NCBI GenBank assembly: GCA_945893365.1
Contig: CAMDED010000023.1
Coordinates: forward strand, 1 to 64,000
Direction: 5' to 3'
Length of the DNA: 64,000 bases
Source of the DNA: Candidatus Sulfopaludibacter sp. SbA3
Lineage (GTDB): Bacteria > Acidobacteriota > Terriglobia > Bryobacterales > Bryobacteraceae
Shown: positions 10,110-23,127 of the stretch, in pieces
Numbering within the stretch: position 1 is the first letter of the stretch
Layout: every line of letters starts with the position of its first letter
Made by a program: the position numbers and the translations under genes
Notes under the pieces: model-generated
The model's input: only the letters and a program-made list of their open reading frames with translations
What the model was told of the DNA's origin: nothing
The model's database searches: none

Positions 10110-10161
10110 GGTTCCTTCCGTAAGCGGAGAGCACGGCTGCGGATGCCGTAGAATGAGAGTT

Positions 10162-10416
10162 ATGGTCAGGAAACTCCAGGCCGTTTACGAAGACGGTGTA
10201 CTCAGACCCCTTGAGGCTCTCTGGCTTGACGAACACCAACTCGTCAGCGTCACCATTGATGACGTCGCGCCGGATGAGAAGCTTCGTTTCGAGGATCCGG
10301 CGCAGTTCGAGCGTCTGGCCGATCATAGCGTGACGCTGGAATCCGTGCGCGGGGCGCTGTCAGGAATTCCCGGTTCATTAGACGCGGATTTCCACGCTGA
10401 ACGAAACGAACCTTAG
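10162..10416 (+). CDS. DUF104-type antitoxin-like protein
   Basis: The product, about 84 aa, begins MVRKLQAVYEDGVLRPLEAL, the standard opening of DUF104 (AF2212-like) antitoxins. An ATG three codons upstream (10153) is in frame, but the conserved family start favours 10162. The rest is acidic and suited to hold a toxin. The gene lies eight bases before a PIN-domain gene, the usual antitoxin-toxin order. Because the toxin is frameshifted, this may be an orphan antitoxin now free to decay or to protect against related toxins elsewhere. Confidence 0.75.
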   Translation: MVRKLQAVYEDGVLRPLEALWLDEHQLVSVTIDDVAPDEKLRFEDPAQFERLADHSVTLESVRGALSGIPGSLDADFHAERNEP

Positions 10417-10424
10417 TCGCCAGT

Positions 10425-10850
10425 GTGCCGAGCTACTTTCTTGACACCAGCGCTCTGGCAAAGCTGTACCACCCCGAGACCGGGAGTGATTGGATGGAGT
10501 CGCTGGTTCAGTCACCCGGCGCACGACTGATCATTTCAGGGCTTTCCCTCATCGAAATCCAGTCTGTCTTCGCCACAAAGGTTAGGACGGGAGCGATCGG
10601 CAAGGCAACCCTTGTACAACTTCGCGGCCTCTTCTTTTCCGATCTTGCCAAGGGGAATTTCCAGGTCGCTCAGCTTGTCCGGCGCCACTTTCAGGACGCC
10701 GAAGCGCTCGTTCGAACTCATGCGTCTGACCATGCTCTCCGAACGCTGGATGCCATCCAGTTATCCGTGGCGCTTGATCTTCGCCGCCGTGGAGTTGGAC
10801 TCGGATATCGTCGCTTCGGACAGGAAGCTGTGCAAGGTGGCAACTCTTGA
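10425..10850 (+). pseudogene. PIN-domain toxin (VapC-like), frameshifted near the C-terminus
   Basis: From a GTG at 10425 the frame encodes a PIN ribonuclease: YFLDTSALAKLY with the first catalytic Asp (Asp7), SLIEIQSVFA with the Glu, and RTLDAIQLSVALDL with the next Asp. At about 10790-10797 the correct reading jumps to another frame, which contains DIVASDRKLCKVATLEG and LIVLNP, the last conserved Asp and final strand. In the original frame these are replaced by GYRRFGQEAVQGGNS. One indel therefore removes the last part of the active site. The toxin is probably dead, unless the shift is a sequencing error or programmed. Confidence 0.75.
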
Positions 10851-17120: not shown

Positions 17121-17942
17121 ATGCCAGAGACGAAATCTCTCGAAGAATTACAGGTCATCGCCAGGCGAGTGCGCCGGGAGATTGTCGAGATGATCTACGA
17201 AGCGAAATCCGGCCATCCGGGTGGCTCCCTTTCGGCGGTGGAAACGCTGATCTCGCTGTATTTTCAGGTGATGCGCCACGATCCGAAGAACCCCAAGTGG
17301 AAGGATCGCGATCGCTTCATTCTCTCCAAGGGCCACGCTTGTCCAGTGCTTTACGCAGTCATGGCGGAGTGCGGCTACACGCCCGTCGATCAGCTCAACA
17401 CGCTGCGCAAAATGGGATCCATCTACCAGGGACATCCGGACGTGCGCTTCATCCCTTCTCTCGACGCGTCCACGGGTTCGCTCGGTGAAGGCGTGTCCCT
17501 GGCGATAGGCATGGGCCTCGCTGCGCGTCTCAACGGCAGCCCGTCGCGCACGTTTGCGATGCTCGGCGACGGCGAGATTCAGGAAGGTCAGGTGTGGGAA
17601 GCGGCGATGTTCGGCGCGTTTCACAAGATGGACAACGTCGTCGCCATCGTGGACTATAATCACATTCAACTCGACGGATTCGTCAAGGACATCATGGAGG
17701 TCGCGCCGCTCGCGGACAAGTGGAAGGCGTTCGGCTGGCATGTGATTAGCGTGGATGGCCACAGTATTCCCGCGCTCGAGACGGCTTTCGCCGAGGCTGC
17801 GGCCACCAAAGGCGTTCCGACCGTGGTCATCGCCAATACGGTTAAAGGGAAGGGAGTTTCGTTCATGGAGAACAATCCCAAATTTCACGGTATGGCGCCG
17901 ACGGCGGACGAGTTTCGTTTGGCTATGCAGGAGCTTCAATAA
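17121..17942 (+). CDS. Transketolase, N-terminal subunit
   Basis: The 273-aa product is the thiamine-diphosphate half of a two-gene transketolase. It has SGHPGGSLSAVETL, DRFILSKGHACPVLYA and the TPP/metal-binding stretch GDGEIQEGQVWEAAMF ending in the Asn of DYNHIQLDG. Together with the next gene it would transfer two-carbon units in the non-oxidative pentose phosphate pathway. The stop overlaps the following ATG (TAATG), giving equal production of both halves. Split transketolases are widespread; some relatives act on other sugars, so the precise substrate is inferred. Confidence 0.92.
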   Translation: MPETKSLEELQVIARRVRREIVEMIYEAKSGHPGGSLSAVETLISLYFQVMRHDPKNPKWKDRDRFILSKGHACPVLYAVMAECGYTPVDQLNTLRKMGSIYQGHPDVRFIPSLDASTGSLGEGVSLAIGMGLAARLNGSPSRTFAMLGDGEIQEGQVWEAAMFGAFHKMDNVVAIVDYNHIQLDGFVKDIMEVAPLADKWKAFGWHVISVDGHSIPALETAFAEAAATKGVPTVVIANTVKGKGVSFMENNPKFHGMAPTADEFRLAMQELQ

Positions 17943-18910
17943 TGGCGGCGGCAACGAAGTTCGATCTCAAGCTCGGCGCGGCCACGCGAGAGGCGTTCGG
18001 CAAGACGTTGGCGCTGATCGCCCGCACCAATCCCGATGTCGTGGTGTGCGACGCGGACTTGTCGAAATCGACGAATACACATTTCTTCGCCAAGGAATTC
18101 CCGGACCGGTTCTTCTCGTGTGGAATCGCCGAATCGAACATGGTGGCGATCGGCGCGGGGTTGGCCTATGGCGGGAAGATCCCGTTTGTGTCGAGCTTTT
18201 CCGCCTTCGTGATGAACAAGGGCTTCGAGCAGCTTCGCGTAACGGTGGCCTATCCGAACCTGAACGTTAAGGTGGTCGGAACCCACAGCGGAATTTCGAT
18301 CGGCGAAGACGGCCCGTCGCAGATGAGCATTGAAGAAATCGCGCTCGCCTGCTCGCTGCCTGGATTCGTCGTACTCTCGCCGGCGGACGAGGTGTCGATG
18401 GCGGCGCTTATGCATCTGGCGACGGCGCATGTCGGACCGGTGTTTATCCGCGCCGGCAGGATGAAGGCGCCTGTGGTTTACCGCGCGGACCGGAAGTTCG
18501 AGATCGGCAAGGCGATCGAGGTCATCGACGGTTCCGACGTGACGATCATTGGCACGGGTCTCCTTCTTGCCGAGGCGGTCCGGGCGGCCGAGACGCTCGA
18601 AAGCGAAGGTATCTCGACCCGCGTGATGGATATCCACACGGTGAAGCCGATCGACCGCGACGCGATTGCCCGCGCCGCGGCGGAGACGGGCGCGATTGTG
18701 GTGGCTGAAGAGCATCTGGTGGATGGCGGCCTCGGCGTCCGCGTCGCGCAAGTGGTGGCGGAGACGAATCCCTGCGTGATGGAGTTTGTGGGGATTCAGA
18801 ACACGTTCGCGGAATCGGCGTCGCCGGAGGAACTGCTGGATAAGTACGGGCTGTTGGCGCGGGATGTGGCTGCCGCGGCGCGTAAAGCCGTTGCGCGCAA
18901 GCGCGCCTGA
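17942..18910 (+). CDS. Transketolase, C-terminal subunit
   Basis: The 322-aa product holds the pyrimidine-binding and C-terminal domains. CGIAESNMVAIGAGLAYGG contains the conserved Glu that activates thiamine diphosphate. GTHSGISIGEDGPSQMSIEE carries substrate-phosphate contacts. TVKPIDRDAI and AEEHLVDGGLG mark the C-terminal domain. It pairs with the N-terminal subunit encoded immediately upstream. It could be confused with DXS or pyruvate dehydrogenase E1 beta, but the split arrangement and motifs fit transketolase best. A decayed IS end begins about 45 bases after the stop. Confidence 0.92.
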   Translation: MAAATKFDLKLGAATREAFGKTLALIARTNPDVVVCDADLSKSTNTHFFAKEFPDRFFSCGIAESNMVAIGAGLAYGGKIPFVSSFSAFVMNKGFEQLRVTVAYPNLNVKVVGTHSGISIGEDGPSQMSIEEIALACSLPGFVVLSPADEVSMAALMHLATAHVGPVFIRAGRMKAPVVYRADRKFEIGKAIEVIDGSDVTIIGTGLLLAEAVRAAETLESEGISTRVMDIHTVKPIDRDAIARAAAETGAIVVAEEHLVDGGLGVRVAQVVAETNPCVMEFVGIQNTFAESASPEELLDKYGLLARDVAAAARKAVARKRA

Positions 18911-19713: not shown

Positions 19714-20256
19714 TCACGGGCCAAGACGGCAGACGCCCTGCGCTTCAATCTCAAGCGCACGGTTGAACTTGGCGGCGCAGATTTCCCATGTAATCGCCGC
19801 CGTCATCTCAATGATCGCTTCGTCGCTGAAGCGCTCGCGCAGGTTTTTGAACAACGCGTCCGGAACCGCGCTGTCCCGTGCGACCGTTTCGGCGTAGGCA
19901 AGCGCCACGCTTTCCGAGGCGGTGAAAAGGGGGCTCGCGGCGAAGTCCGCCAGAGCGTCGAGCTCGGAATCTGTCAGGCCGTCCGCTCTGCCCACGGCAG
20001 AGTTCACCTCAATTCAAAGTCCACAGCCGATGAGCGAAGCGACTTTGATATTGATCAGGTGGGTCAAACGCGCCGGTAGAAGCGCGCTTTCGCCGAGCGC
20101 GTCCCACATGGCTCGGAATCCGCGAAAAATCGCTGGCGTGCGCGCGAGCACCGCATGGTTCTGAAGTACGGCCCCGTAGTCGGCTTCCTGACGCTCGTAG
20201 ACGCGTTGGATGTCCGCGGGCGCCGCGCCCTTCGGGAGGCCCGTCAATCGCGCCAT
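19714..20256 (-). pseudogene. Carboxymuconolactone decarboxylase/AhpD-family gene, frameshifted
   Basis: Two minus frames form one protein. 20256-20014 encodes the N-terminal half, ending INIKVASLIGCG; 20007-19714 encodes the rest, NSAVGRADGLTDSELDAL, TASESVALAYAETVARD and ITWEICAAKFNRALEIE. In the family the join reads IGCxxCIDLNS, the active-site CxxC. Here a one-base indel at about 20010 destroys exactly that motif and gives a stop (TGTGGACTTTGA). Unless this is a sequencing error, the peroxidatic site is lost. The gene ends the BMC/KdpD gene row on this strand. Confidence 0.8.
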
Positions 20257-20259
20257 GGT

Positions 20260-20814
20260 TTAAAGCATCTCACTGAGCAGCTCCGGCCGGGGCTGCGGTA
20301 TCACGACCTTGTTCACGAGCAGACCTTTACGGCCGATAATCTGCGCTCCCGCTTCCACCGCCGCCGTGACCGCCGAGACGCTGCCTGTCACCGATGCGAA
20401 CGCCTTCCCGCCCAATGCCATCGCGAGCCTGACTTCGATCAACCGCACGTCCGCCGTTTTTGCCATCGCGTCCGCACCCTGAATGAGAGACGCCACGGAG
20501 AACGACTCGATAATTCCCAGCGCTTCGAGCGCCTCGACTTTCGCGATCCCGCCGATTGCCGGAAAGATCGACTCGTGAACGTTTGGAATGATGAAGGTGT
20601 CGACGAGCGAGAATTCGCCAACCGACGAGCCCGCGCGCACGGCAGCCTCGACCGAGGCAACATCGCCGCGGATCAGTACCATGTATTTGCCCGAGCAGAT
20701 GGTGCGGGCGAGGATGAGCTCTACGTCCGCGGTCTTCAGCATCGCATCGCAGGCGAGAAAGCCGGCGGCGATGCTTCCGAGCTCGATCAGCCCAATGGAG
20801 GTTTTTGCGGACAT
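20260..20814 (-). CDS. Tandem-domain microcompartment shell protein (BMC-T), PduT-like
   Basis: The 184-aa protein has two BMC domains in a row: SIGLIELGSIAAGFLACDAM (from residue 6) and the second from about residue 95 (AKVEALEALGIIESFSVASL). It is closest in pattern to PduT. TICSGKY keeps the cysteine (Cys40) that in PduT sits at the trimer pore and helps bind an iron-sulfur cluster. Linker FIIPNVHESIFPAI and C-terminal GLLVNKVVIPQP also match PduT. Shell trimers of this kind form part of a protein-walled organelle. No other shell or enzyme genes for a compartment are in the window, so it is an orphan here. Confidence 0.88.
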   Translation of the reverse strand: MSAKTSIGLIELGSIAAGFLACDAMLKTADVELILARTICSGKYMVLIRGDVASVEAAVRAGSSVGEFSLVDTFIIPNVHESIFPAIGGIAKVEALEALGIIESFSVASLIQGADAMAKTADVRLIEVRLAMALGGKAFASVTGSVSAVTAAVEAGAQIIGRKGLLVNKVVIPQPRPELLSEML

Positions 20815-20869: not shown

Positions 20870-22006
20870 CTACTTCCGGGCGCGCCGTTCGGCCACCACG
20901 GTGACTTGGATATCCCTGGCGAGCCGGACAATTCGCATGGCCAGTTGCCGCTTGCTCAAGAAGCGTAGGACCGGCCGGGGCGGCTTGGCGAGAAAGATCT
21001 GCGTTACGCCGTTTCGCCGCGCGAAGTCGACGAGCGTTCGCGCCTCGTCCTCACCCTCCAGAATCCGCGTTTCAATGTGAAGCTTGCGCGCGAAGTCGAG
21101 TTGTTGTTCCAAAGCGCCCCGTGTCTTCGCCGGCACGGATCCCATTCCGGGACCGGGTAACACGCATACGGCAAAGCAATCCGCATTGAGGTAGTCGGAC
21201 ACCCGGTGGCCCCGCCGGATAAGGGCCGCGGTGGCGGGCGCTTCGGTGATATGAATCAGGATGCGCTCCCTGGCTCCGTCCGCCATCACACCACCCTGCG
21301 AAGGCTCGGACGCTACCGAGGGCTCCCTGTTGTTCTCGCCGCCGTGCCGGCTATCCACCTCGTGCGCGGTTTGACGGAGAGCCATCTCGCGCAGAGCCGC
21401 GAGCGTCGGCTCCTTGAAAAAGTTCTCCTTTGCCCGCTGAGCCTTGTCCGGCGCGTAGACCACGCCTCGATCCAGCCGGTTCAGCAGAGCCCGGGGCGTA
21501 AGGTCGACCAGCACCATCTCGGCGGCGCGTTTCATCACCCAGTCCGGAATCGTCTCGCGAACCTGGACGCCGGTGATCTCCCGCATCTGGTCGTTGAGGC
21601 TTTCCAAGTGTTGGATGTTCATCGTCGTGACGACATCGACGCCCGCATCGAGCAGAACCAGGACGTCCTCCCATCGCTTGGACCGCTCAGCGCCGGGCAC
21701 GTTCGTATGAGGGAATTCATCCACGAGACAGATTTCAGGGTGGCGCTGAAGGATCGCCGGAGTGTCCATCTCTTCAAACCGGCGCCCGCGATACTCAATC
21801 GCGCGGCGGGGAACGAACTCCAGCCCTTCCGCGAGGGCGATCGTTTCCTTGCGGCCGTGCGGTTCGAAGTATCCAACCACGACGTCATGGCCCTGCGCGG
21901 CTAGGGTATGTCCTTCGTCGAGCATCTTGTACGTCTTGCCGACACCCGCCGCGTATCCCAGAATGATCTTCAACCGCCCCGGCTTTCCTCGCGGCGCCGG
22001 GTTCAT
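20870..22006 (-). CDS. KdpD N-terminal domain plus universal-stress domain protein (second copy)
   Basis: The 378-aa protein corresponds only to the cytoplasmic N-terminal part of the potassium sensor KdpD, about 40 percent of normal length. The Walker A motif GYAAGVGKT is at 17-25, and the Walker B region CLVDEFPHTN with RSKRWEDV and TTMNIQHLESLND is intact. A USP-like domain follows from about residue 245 (RILIHITEAP). The DUF4118 membrane region and histidine kinase domain are absent. Its start overlaps the stop of a paralogue by four bases. It is likely a nucleotide- or second-messenger-binding regulator of potassium uptake, but no kdp genes are nearby. Confidence 0.85.
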   Translation of the reverse strand: MNPAPRGKPGRLKIILGYAAGVGKTYKMLDEGHTLAAQGHDVVVGYFEPHGRKETIALAEGLEFVPRRAIEYRGRRFEEMDTPAILQRHPEICLVDEFPHTNVPGAERSKRWEDVLVLLDAGVDVVTTMNIQHLESLNDQMREITGVQVRETIPDWVMKRAAEMVLVDLTPRALLNRLDRGVVYAPDKAQRAKENFFKEPTLAALREMALRQTAHEVDSRHGGENNREPSVASEPSQGGVMADGARERILIHITEAPATAALIRRGHRVSDYLNADCFAVCVLPGPGMGSVPAKTRGALEQQLDFARKLHIETRILEGEDEARTLVDFARRNGVTQIFLAKPPRPVLRFLSKRQLAMRIVRLARDIQVTVVAERRARK

Positions 22007-23127
22007 CGCGCGTTCTCCCCGTGTGGAAAGATGCGCACGTCGATGCCGTCGGCCTCAAGGATAAACCTTTCCAGCGGATTGGGCCGGATGCGATCGAGCC
22101 AGGTGTCGCGCAGGCTGTGTCCAACAAACAGTTGCGTGATTCCATGCTGCGTTGCGTGGCGAAGAATGGCGGTGACCGGATCTTCTCCGTGCAGGATCTC
22201 GACGTGAGCGCAGGCATTGCGAGCGGCGTCAAGATTGTTCTCGAGCGTCCGCCGGTCCTCCGAAGCTAATTCTCCGCGTTCGACGTATGCGACGTAAAGA
22301 TCGCCGTGAAAGCGGTCGGCCTGGCGCCTGCCGCGGCGAATCATCAGGGACGCGTTCGATCTGGGCGTGACGCACACCAGAACCCGCTCTTGCGCGCCAT
22401 ACGTCTGATCGATGCCTTGGCGGCGAAGGTAATCCTCGAGCTGGCGATCGACCACTTCGGCCGTGAGCACGAGCGCAATCTCGCGCAATTGCGAGAGACG
22501 CTGTTCGATTTGAAGGGCGTCGTTTCCGGGAGAGCCGGAGTCGGCGCGCTGCGCGCGATCGATGCAGTACTCGGGCGGTGCATCGACGAGCTCGATCTCA
22601 TCGGCGCCGTGAAGGAAGCTCTCCGGGACGGAATCGTCAACCCGCTTTCCGCGAATCGCCTCCACTTGCGGTTGGAGTTCCCGGATGTACTGTACGTTGA
22701 TTGACGTCAGAACAGAGATCCCCGCCGTCAAAAGCTCTTCGACATCCTGCCAGCGCTCTGCATTCTTGCTGCCTTCCGGATTCCTGTACGCCAAGCCGTC
22801 GATCAGGCAGAGAGAAGGTTTGCGACGCTTGACCGCCTCGACATCGACACTCGGACTGGCCAGATCCGTCCGTAGCGGAATCAATTCCAGTTGCGCCAGA
22901 AGTTGTTCGACTTCGTCCCCCGCCTCGTGTTGGACCGCTGCCACCACTACGTCTCCGCCGCGGGCTTTGCGCCGCCGCCCCTCATCGAGCATGCGGAAGG
23001 ACTTTCCGACGCCCGAAGCATATCCGAGAAACACTTTAAGCTTGCCCCGGTGCTGAAACCGCTCCTCGGCCTCCACCTGTTGAAGAAGCTGTTCGGGGCT
23101 CGGGCGTTGGCGGCCTAGGTTGGGCAT
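22003..23127 (-). CDS. KdpD N-terminal domain plus universal-stress domain protein (first copy)
   Basis: This 374-aa paralogue precedes the other KdpD-N gene on the same strand. Walker A is GYASGVGKS at 35-43. The following acidic motif reads CLIDGLAYRN instead of the usual DELAHTN, so the conserved Glu and His are replaced, and TSINVQYIREL replaces TTLNVQHLESL. A USP domain begins near residue 250 (RVLVCVTPRS). It also lacks the membrane and kinase parts. The changes suggest that this copy binds but may not hydrolyse nucleotide, perhaps forming a hetero-oligomer with its neighbour. Function in detail is unknown. Confidence 0.85.
   Translation of the reverse strand: MPNLGRQRPSPEQLLQQVEAEERFQHRGKLKVFLGYASGVGKSFRMLDEGRRRKARGGDVVVAAVQHEAGDEVEQLLAQLELIPLRTDLASPSVDVEAVKRRKPSLCLIDGLAYRNPEGSKNAERWQDVEELLTAGISVLTSINVQYIRELQPQVEAIRGKRVDDSVPESFLHGADEIELVDAPPEYCIDRAQRADSGSPGNDALQIEQRLSQLREIALVLTAEVVDRQLEDYLRRQGIDQTYGAQERVLVCVTPRSNASLMIRRGRRQADRFHGDLYVAYVERGELASEDRRTLENNLDAARNACAHVEILHGEDPVTAILRHATQHGITQLFVGHSLRDTWLDRIRPNPLERFILEADGIDVRIFPHGENAR

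What the first reader, a model, noticed from the sequence alone, without database searches (positions are those of the whole stretch)
20870..23127. Two overlapping KdpD N-domain proteins without kinase, one with an altered Walker B region
Both have Walker A and a USP domain; neither has membrane spans or a histidine kinase. One has DEFPHTN, the other DGLAYRN in place of the conserved DELAHTN. This suggests an active/inactive pair forming a hetero-oligomer. No kdpFABC is present. In other bacteria KdpD-N/USP regions bind ATP or c-di-AMP.
Basis: partly seen in the sequence, partly recalled or inferred. Interest (0 to 1): 0.6.

Follow-up and report, generated by a model that had tools for sequence, protein, structure and literature searches.

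The report
Kinase–pseudokinase pair of the Kdp system
Two neighbouring genes encode an apparently working and an apparently dead copy of the enzyme domain that switches off a bacterial potassium pump; the pair is kept together in many soil Acidobacteria, which suggests the dead copy is a dedicated regulator of the working one.

Summary
Observation confirmed. On the minus strand, protein A (22003-23127, DGLAYRN) and protein B (20870-22006, DEFPHTN) overlap by ATGA. Both are a KdpD N-domain plus a USP-fold domain, without membrane spans or histidine kinase.

The pair is conserved: A occurs in 125 of 257 genomes of the order and in other Acidobacteriota families, usually as tandem A-B just downstream of kdpFABC. 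In this genome kdpFABC lies on another contig.

The KdpD N-domain is an atypical serine kinase (ASK) acting on KdpB; its Walker B Asp and Glu are essential (PMC11018627). B keeps the active site in 94 of 94 homologues. A has a lesion at the P-loop glycine or the catalytic Glu in 95 of 95, yet is under purifying selection.

Conversely, B's USP is barely recognisable by Pfam (4 of 50), A's is (57 of 60). I infer complementary specialisation: B is the catalytic ASK, A a sensory/regulatory pseudokinase. Complex formation, ligand and KdpB phosphorylation are untested. The neighbouring shell-protein gene is coincidental.

The parts
22003..23127 (-). Gene A: KdpD N-domain + USP, degenerate active site (pseudo-ASK)
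   Evidence: ORF; PF02702 186.6 bits; AF2 model pLDDT 91.2
22999..23025 (-). A: Walker A-like P-loop GYASGVGKS
   Evidence: Lys kept in 94 of 95 A homologues
22780..22800 (-). A: Walker B region DGLAYRN; catalytic Glu replaced by Gly
   Evidence: Gly in 78 of 95 A homologues, Asp in 95 of 95
22015..22398 (-). A: USP-fold domain (residues about 244-371)
   Evidence: 7JI4 match Z 17.1, TMt 0.84
22003..22006 (-). 4-base ATGA overlap of A stop and B start
   Evidence: ATGA-type in 49 of 186 pair loci (this count contains loci of the same genome fetched twice)
20870..22006 (-). Gene B: KdpD N-domain + USP-fold, intact active site (ASK)
   Evidence: ORF; PF02702 297.5 bits; AF2 model pLDDT 86.9; 2R8R TMt 0.95
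21932..21958 (-). B: Walker A-like P-loop GYAAGVGKT
   Evidence: G, K, T invariant in 94 of 94
21701..21721 (-). B: Walker B region DEFPHTN
   Evidence: D and E invariant in 94 of 94
20885..21274 (-). B: diverged USP-fold domain (residues about 245-374)
   Evidence: 7JI4 TMt 0.88; Pfam Usp in only 4 of 50 B homologues

Best explanation
The two genes encode a two-chain version of the KdpD serine-kinase module that regulates the potassium pump KdpFABC. B is the catalytic chain: an atypical serine kinase that binds ATP in its Walker A/B site and phosphorylates the TGES serine of KdpB, shutting the pump when potassium is high. A is a pseudokinase paralogue: it keeps the fold, the P-loop lysine and the Mg-binding Asp but has lost the catalytic and probable substrate-contacting residues. 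I infer that A binds B, and perhaps KdpB, and supplies the nucleotide-sensing USP domain that in B has diverged beyond recognition by Pfam, so that the pair is one regulated kinase with separate catalytic and sensory chains. Transcriptional control is left to a third chain, a separate histidine kinase with a KdpE-like regulator. Shown by sequence: conservation of the pair, its kdp context, the active-site asymmetry, the purifying selection and the reciprocal divergence of the two domains. Inferred: complex formation, the ligand (c-di-AMP most likely) and the KdpB target in this lineage.
For: Pair tandem in 74 of 79 A-bearing loci, and kdpC on the same strand within 3.5 kb upstream in 57 of 79. 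(G,E) at P-loop/Walker B: 94 of 94 B, 15 of 15 full-length KdpD, 14 of 14 solitary short KdpD, 0 of 95 A. Of 50 N-domain residues invariant in B and full-length KdpD, A keeps 24 and has lost 22, with 4 intermediate. A evolves with dN/dS 0.02-0.19, like B (16 locus pairs). Pfam Usp found in 57 of 60 A, 10 of 10 solitary short KdpD, 4 of 50 B. Mean pairwise identity: A N-domain 0.58, A USP 0.52, B N-domain 0.71, B USP 0.49 (91 paired loci). A and B are separate, fully supported clades. A-B distance correlation 0.47 after removing KdpA and KdpB, against 0.22 for A-KdpB (47 loci). KdpB has TGES in 47 of 47 and in the window's own genome. Diadenylate cyclase, DUF4118 histidine kinase and KdpE-like regulator occur in the own genome. 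Biochemistry of the ASK domain and of short KdpD/Usp proteins: PMC11018627 (passages and section 8 read).
Against: No interaction or activity was tested, and no two-chain model could be built. In this genome the pair is no longer beside kdpFABC, and the two other genomes of the same genus (86% and 73% complete) have no KdpD N-domain match. 11 of 79 loci have 3 kb or more upstream without a kdp hit. Four loci have A without an adjacent B; in G028 only one KdpD N-domain (the A) was found in the genome. The USP identity difference (0.52 against 0.49) is modest. No natural A-B fusion was seen in 186 pair loci. The c-di-AMP motif known from Firmicutes is absent from A and found in 1 of 72 B. The adenine-contacting Arg is kept in only 46 of 95 A, so ATP binding by A is doubtful.
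Confidence: 0.6

Rival explanations
1. A is a stand-alone antagonist: it binds the KdpB A-domain or c-di-AMP without phosphorylating and so protects the pump from B, rather than forming a complex with B.
For: A keeps the fold and P-loop but not the catalytic Glu. In four loci A stays next to kdpABC while B is elsewhere or missing.
Against: A has lost many of the residues invariant in B and full-length KdpD, which should weaken KdpB binding. A and B nearly always stand in tandem, as expected for co-expression.
Confidence: 0.15
2. A is still an enzyme with altered chemistry or another substrate (for example one where Gly replaces the activating Glu and the substrate supplies the base).
For: P-loop Lys 94 of 95, Walker B Asp 95 of 95 and a new conserved Glu (B Ser136 to Glu in 94 of 95). 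Purifying selection.
Against: Lesions differ between lineages (P-loop G to R/N, Glu to G/Q/P, Walker B deleted in G584), which fits loss of one activity better than gain of a specific new one. Mutating E110 abolishes KdpB phosphorylation in E. coli KdpD (PMC11018627).
Confidence: 0.1
3. In the window's own organism the pair has left the Kdp system and now serves the neighbouring shell protein or other genes.
For: Here the pair is followed directly by a BMC-domain shell protein gene, and kdpFABC is on another contig. In G203, the closest relative at 72% identity, the 13 kb fetched show no kdp hit either.
Against: The shell protein was found beside the pair in none of 80 relatives' loci and none of 80 named loci (the two sets overlap). 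Both genes keep their family-typical motifs, and KdpB with TGES, histidine kinase, KdpE-like regulator and diadenylate cyclase are all present in the genome.
Confidence: 0.08
4. A is a decaying duplicate without function.
For: Loss of catalytic residues and shortening of the D168..R206 segment.
Against: dN/dS 0.02-0.19 in 16 locus pairs; 47 invariant columns in 37 and 39 in 60 diverse members; AF2 model with pLDDT 91; retained in 125 of 257 genomes.
Confidence: 0.03

Closest known systems
Short KdpD/Usp atypical serine kinase, e.g. Deinococcus geothermalis KdpD (PMC11018627)
   Same: KdpD N-domain + USP without membrane or kinase domains; B keeps every residue reported essential for serine phosphorylation; linked to kdpFABC in relatives; diadenylate cyclase in the genome.
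   Different: Here there are two chains in tandem, one with a broken active site. The passages I read in that paper describe no degenerate partner.
[quoted passage not shown]
   Same: Separate DUF4118/HisKA/HATPase histidine kinase and KdpE-like regulator near the pair or elsewhere in the genome.
   Different: Three chains instead of two: histidine kinase, ASK (B) and pseudo-ASK (A).
NCBIfam NF038185 KdpD_non_kinase
   Same: Both proteins match over almost the full model (329.1 and 228.0 bits).
   Different: Both lie well below the curated cut-off of 550 bits; A lacks catalytic residues.
S. aureus KdpD USP domain bound to c-di-AMP (PDB 7JI4, PMC8214093)
   Same: Closest solved structure for the C-terminal domain of both models.
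   Different: 13-14% identity; the motif (A/G/C)XSXSX2N is essentially absent.

Membership tests
KdpD N-terminal domain (Pfam PF02702) | Match over the curated cut-off of 26.1 bits | tested here: met
   A 186.6 bits, B 297.5 bits
Full-length KdpD sensor histidine kinase | Membrane (DUF4118), HisKA and HATPase domains on the same chain | tested here: not met
   No such domain in A or B; both end after the USP fold
NCBIfam NF038185 KdpD_non_kinase | Score over the curated cut-off of 550 bits | tested here: not met
   B 329.1, A 228.0 bits
KdpD-type atypical serine kinase (protein B) | Walker A GKT, Walker B D and E, aromatic + Arg adenine pair (E. coli G36/K37/T38, D109/E110, W39/R190) | tested here: met
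   All kept in 94 of 94 B; the W39 position is Tyr or Phe. E. coli numbers mapped by constant offset from the numbers in PMC11018627, not from an E. coli sequence
KdpD-type atypical serine kinase (protein A) | Same residues, Glu110 essential | tested here: not met
   Glu kept in 14 of 95, and those 14 have P-loop Gly to Arg; intact combination in 0 of 95
KdpD-type atypical serine kinase (protein B) | Phosphorylates KdpB at the TGES serine | not testable with these tools
   Target motif present in own KdpB and 47 of 47 others
USP domain | USP fold | tested here: met
   A: 7JI4 Z 17.1, TMt 0.84; B: TMt 0.88; Pfam Usp cut-off not reached by either window protein
c-di-AMP-binding KdpD USP (Firmicutes type) | (A/G/C)XSXSX2N motif | tested here: not met
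   Pattern found in 0 of 80 A and 1 of 72 B; absence does not exclude binding in another mode

The most novel reading that the evidence does not exclude
The pair is a kinase-pseudokinase enzyme made by complementary degeneration: after duplication one chain kept catalysis and let its nucleotide-sensing domain drift, the other kept the sensing domain and lost catalysis, so that only the complex is a ligand-gated serine kinase of a P-type ATPase. That would be the first pseudokinase found for the KdpD serine-kinase fold.
Probability: 0.45. Interest if true: 0.7.

Novelty: new variant of a known kind. Interest (0 to 1): 0.55.

Why it matters
KdpD's serine-kinase activity was described only in 2024 and how short forms are switched is largely open. 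A natural system in which catalysis and sensing appear to sit on separate chains would let the two be studied apart, and would add a bacterial P-loop example to the kinase-pseudokinase principle. It also warns that annotation counts of 'KdpD' in Acidobacteriota include many proteins that are probably catalytically dead.

Tried and rejected
Microcompartment link: the shell-protein gene next to the pair looked suggestive, but it is beside the pair in no other locus examined, so rejected as coincidence; a paper search for KdpD with bacterial microcompartment gave only unrelated papers by title and abstract start.

Rosetta-stone fusion of A and B: none in 186 pair loci (the set contains some genomes twice).

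Pseudogene reading of A: rejected by dN/dS.

c-di-AMP motif: absent or nearly so, so the ligand stays open.

Literature: searches for KdpD with truncated + Anabaena + N-terminal domain, with Acidobacteri + kdpFABC, with pseudokinase, with atypical serine kinase, and with Walker B + paralog gave no paper that, by title and abstract start, describes a degenerate KdpD partner. Only open-licence PMC papers are held; of PMC11018627 I read passages and section 8, of PMC8214093 passages.

Distribution outside Acidobacteriota: not settled. One of the 80 is titled Nevskia soli; its contig has the same length as a contig of G042, which the genome tool puts in the window's own family.

Rows dropped: the 95 A and 94 B sets exclude ORFs under 300 aa, ORFs without an upstream stop in the locus, and duplicates. 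Incomplete listings: the genome search does not print all matches.

Full report
What is there. On the minus strand two genes overlap by ATGA: A (22003-23127, 374 aa) and B (20870-22006, 378 aa). Both have the KdpD N-domain (PF02702; 186.6 and 297.5 bits), and predicted models of both show that domain followed by a USP fold. A: pLDDT 91.2, matches 2R8R (Z 26.8) and the c-di-AMP-bound KdpD USP 7JI4 (Z 17.1). B: pLDDT 86.9, matches 2R8R (TMt 0.95) and 7JI4 (TMt 0.88). Neither has membrane or histidine-kinase domains.

Where it belongs. These are the only two KdpD N-domain matches in the genome. The window has no kdp genes among the queries used, but contig C35 of the same genome carries KdpA, KdpB and KdpC genes, contig C276 a DUF4118 histidine kinase and a KdpE-like regulator (45% and 68% identity to those of L078), and contig C112 a diadenylate cyclase. 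I fetched 80 loci around relatives. Of 79 with an A, 74 have B right behind it on the same strand, one more has B 642 bases on, and four have A alone; in 57 of 79 kdpC lies upstream on the same strand within 3.5 kb. Full loci read histidine kinase - KdpE-like regulator - kdpABC - A - B (L078, L076); a small ORF stands before kdpA in L078, and a BBP2 porin and a small ORF stand before A in L076. Of 41 genomes with A, at least 26 have a DUF4118 protein within 10 kb of A on the same contig (my reading, whose listing is incomplete).

Distribution. By my reading (best E-value at most 7.9e-64) 125 of 257 genomes of the order hold an A. Of 20 genomes with a full-length-type KdpD (open frame 863-932 aa in the printed rows), one (G131) also has an A, so the pair and full-length KdpD look like alternatives. 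In a sample of 396 genomes of the phylum, 9 hold an A (463 bits or more; the next match has 329 bits), spread over six families including the window's own. Against a simple story, the two other genomes of the window's genus have no KdpD N-domain match.

The active site. Using E. coli numbers from PMC11018627 (G36/K37/T38, D109/E110, W39/R190; constant offset of 13 to B), B keeps all of them in 94 of 94 homologues, with Tyr or Phe at W39. A keeps Lys in 94 of 95 and Asp in 95 of 95, but the pair P-loop Gly / Walker B residue reads (G,G) 67, (R,E) 14, (R,G) 11, (N,Q) 2, (R,Q) 1 and never the intact (G,E). Six A from other families read (G,G) four times, (G,P) once and Walker B deleted once. Fourteen solitary short KdpD of other Acidobacteriota and fifteen full-length KdpD are all (G,E). 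The paper reports that mutating D109 or E110 individually abolished KdpB phosphorylation. Of 50 residues invariant in B and full-length KdpD, A keeps 24, has lost 22 and is intermediate at 4; the D168..R206 segment is 39 aa in all B and 13-34 aa in A.

Not decay. dN/dS of A in 16 locus pairs is 0.02-0.19, similar to B. A and B form two separate clades with full support, both distinct from solitary and full-length forms, with several matching sub-groupings (A and B of W/L048/G322, L106/G458, G484/G516), as expected for a unit inherited or moved together. Distances of A and B correlate at 0.47 after removing KdpA and KdpB, against 0.22 for A with KdpB and 0.41 for B with KdpB (47 loci); this is suggestive only.

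Division of labour. Pfam Usp at E 0.01 is found in 57 of 60 A, in 10 of 10 of the solitary short KdpD that I submitted (10 of the 14 held), and in 4 of 50 B. Identity over 91 paired loci: A N-domain 0.58 and USP 0.52; B N-domain 0.71 and USP 0.49; full-length KdpD (15) 0.74 and 0.62. So B's constraint is concentrated on the kinase domain and A's is spread more evenly to the USP. The A consensus holds a conserved loop (C-x-T-P-R) at the start of the USP domain, where KdpD USPs bind nucleotide according to PMC8214093, but not the Firmicutes c-di-AMP motif.

Mechanism. Shown by published work on relatives: the KdpD N-domain phosphorylates KdpB Ser162, and a short KdpD/Usp does so under c-di-AMP control (PMC11018627). 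Shown here: B has every residue reported as needed, A does not, and the two are kept together with the pump. Inferred: A is a regulatory pseudokinase that partners B and carries the sensory USP. The reading that A antagonises B on its own is the best rival.

Novelty. Short KdpD/Usp kinases and split KdpD are known. I found no description of a degenerate tandem partner in the searches made. I therefore rate it a new variant of a known kind.

Noticed in passing
window 20260-20814 (-): A tandem-domain microcompartment shell protein (BMC x2; best NCBIfam match PduT-like, below cut-off) directly downstream of B; the genome's other BMC hits are two single matches on contigs C233 and C87, so shell genes look scattered.
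   Followed up: partly
window 19714-20256 (-): Probable selenoprotein: NCBIfam 'YciW-related (seleno)protein' matched in two halves around an in-frame TGA at 20014-20016 (C-G-L-U), followed by a 7-bp stem-loop (fold z-score only -0.94); the genome has a tRNA-SeC gene.
   Followed up: partly
L041 1-2550 (own contig C35): Apparent remains of a second kdp copy (kdpC-like ORF and a kdpA broken by frame changes and a stop) directly before the intact kdpABC.
   Followed up: no
window 17121-18910 (+): Transketolase split in two adjacent genes (N-terminal and C-terminal halves).
   Followed up: no
window 10153-10850 (+): Small ORF followed by a PIN-domain protein, a likely toxin-antitoxin pair.
   Followed up: no
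L078 16047-16517; L041 2226-3191; L272 8738-9193: A small similar-looking ORF between the KdpE-like gene and kdpA (in L041 before kdpA), without a Pfam match for the two tested.
   Followed up: partly
L091, L092 (genome G030): In genus g4 the pair is split: in G030 A stays behind kdpABC, while B sits elsewhere on the contig near the DUF4118 histidine kinase.
   Followed up: partly
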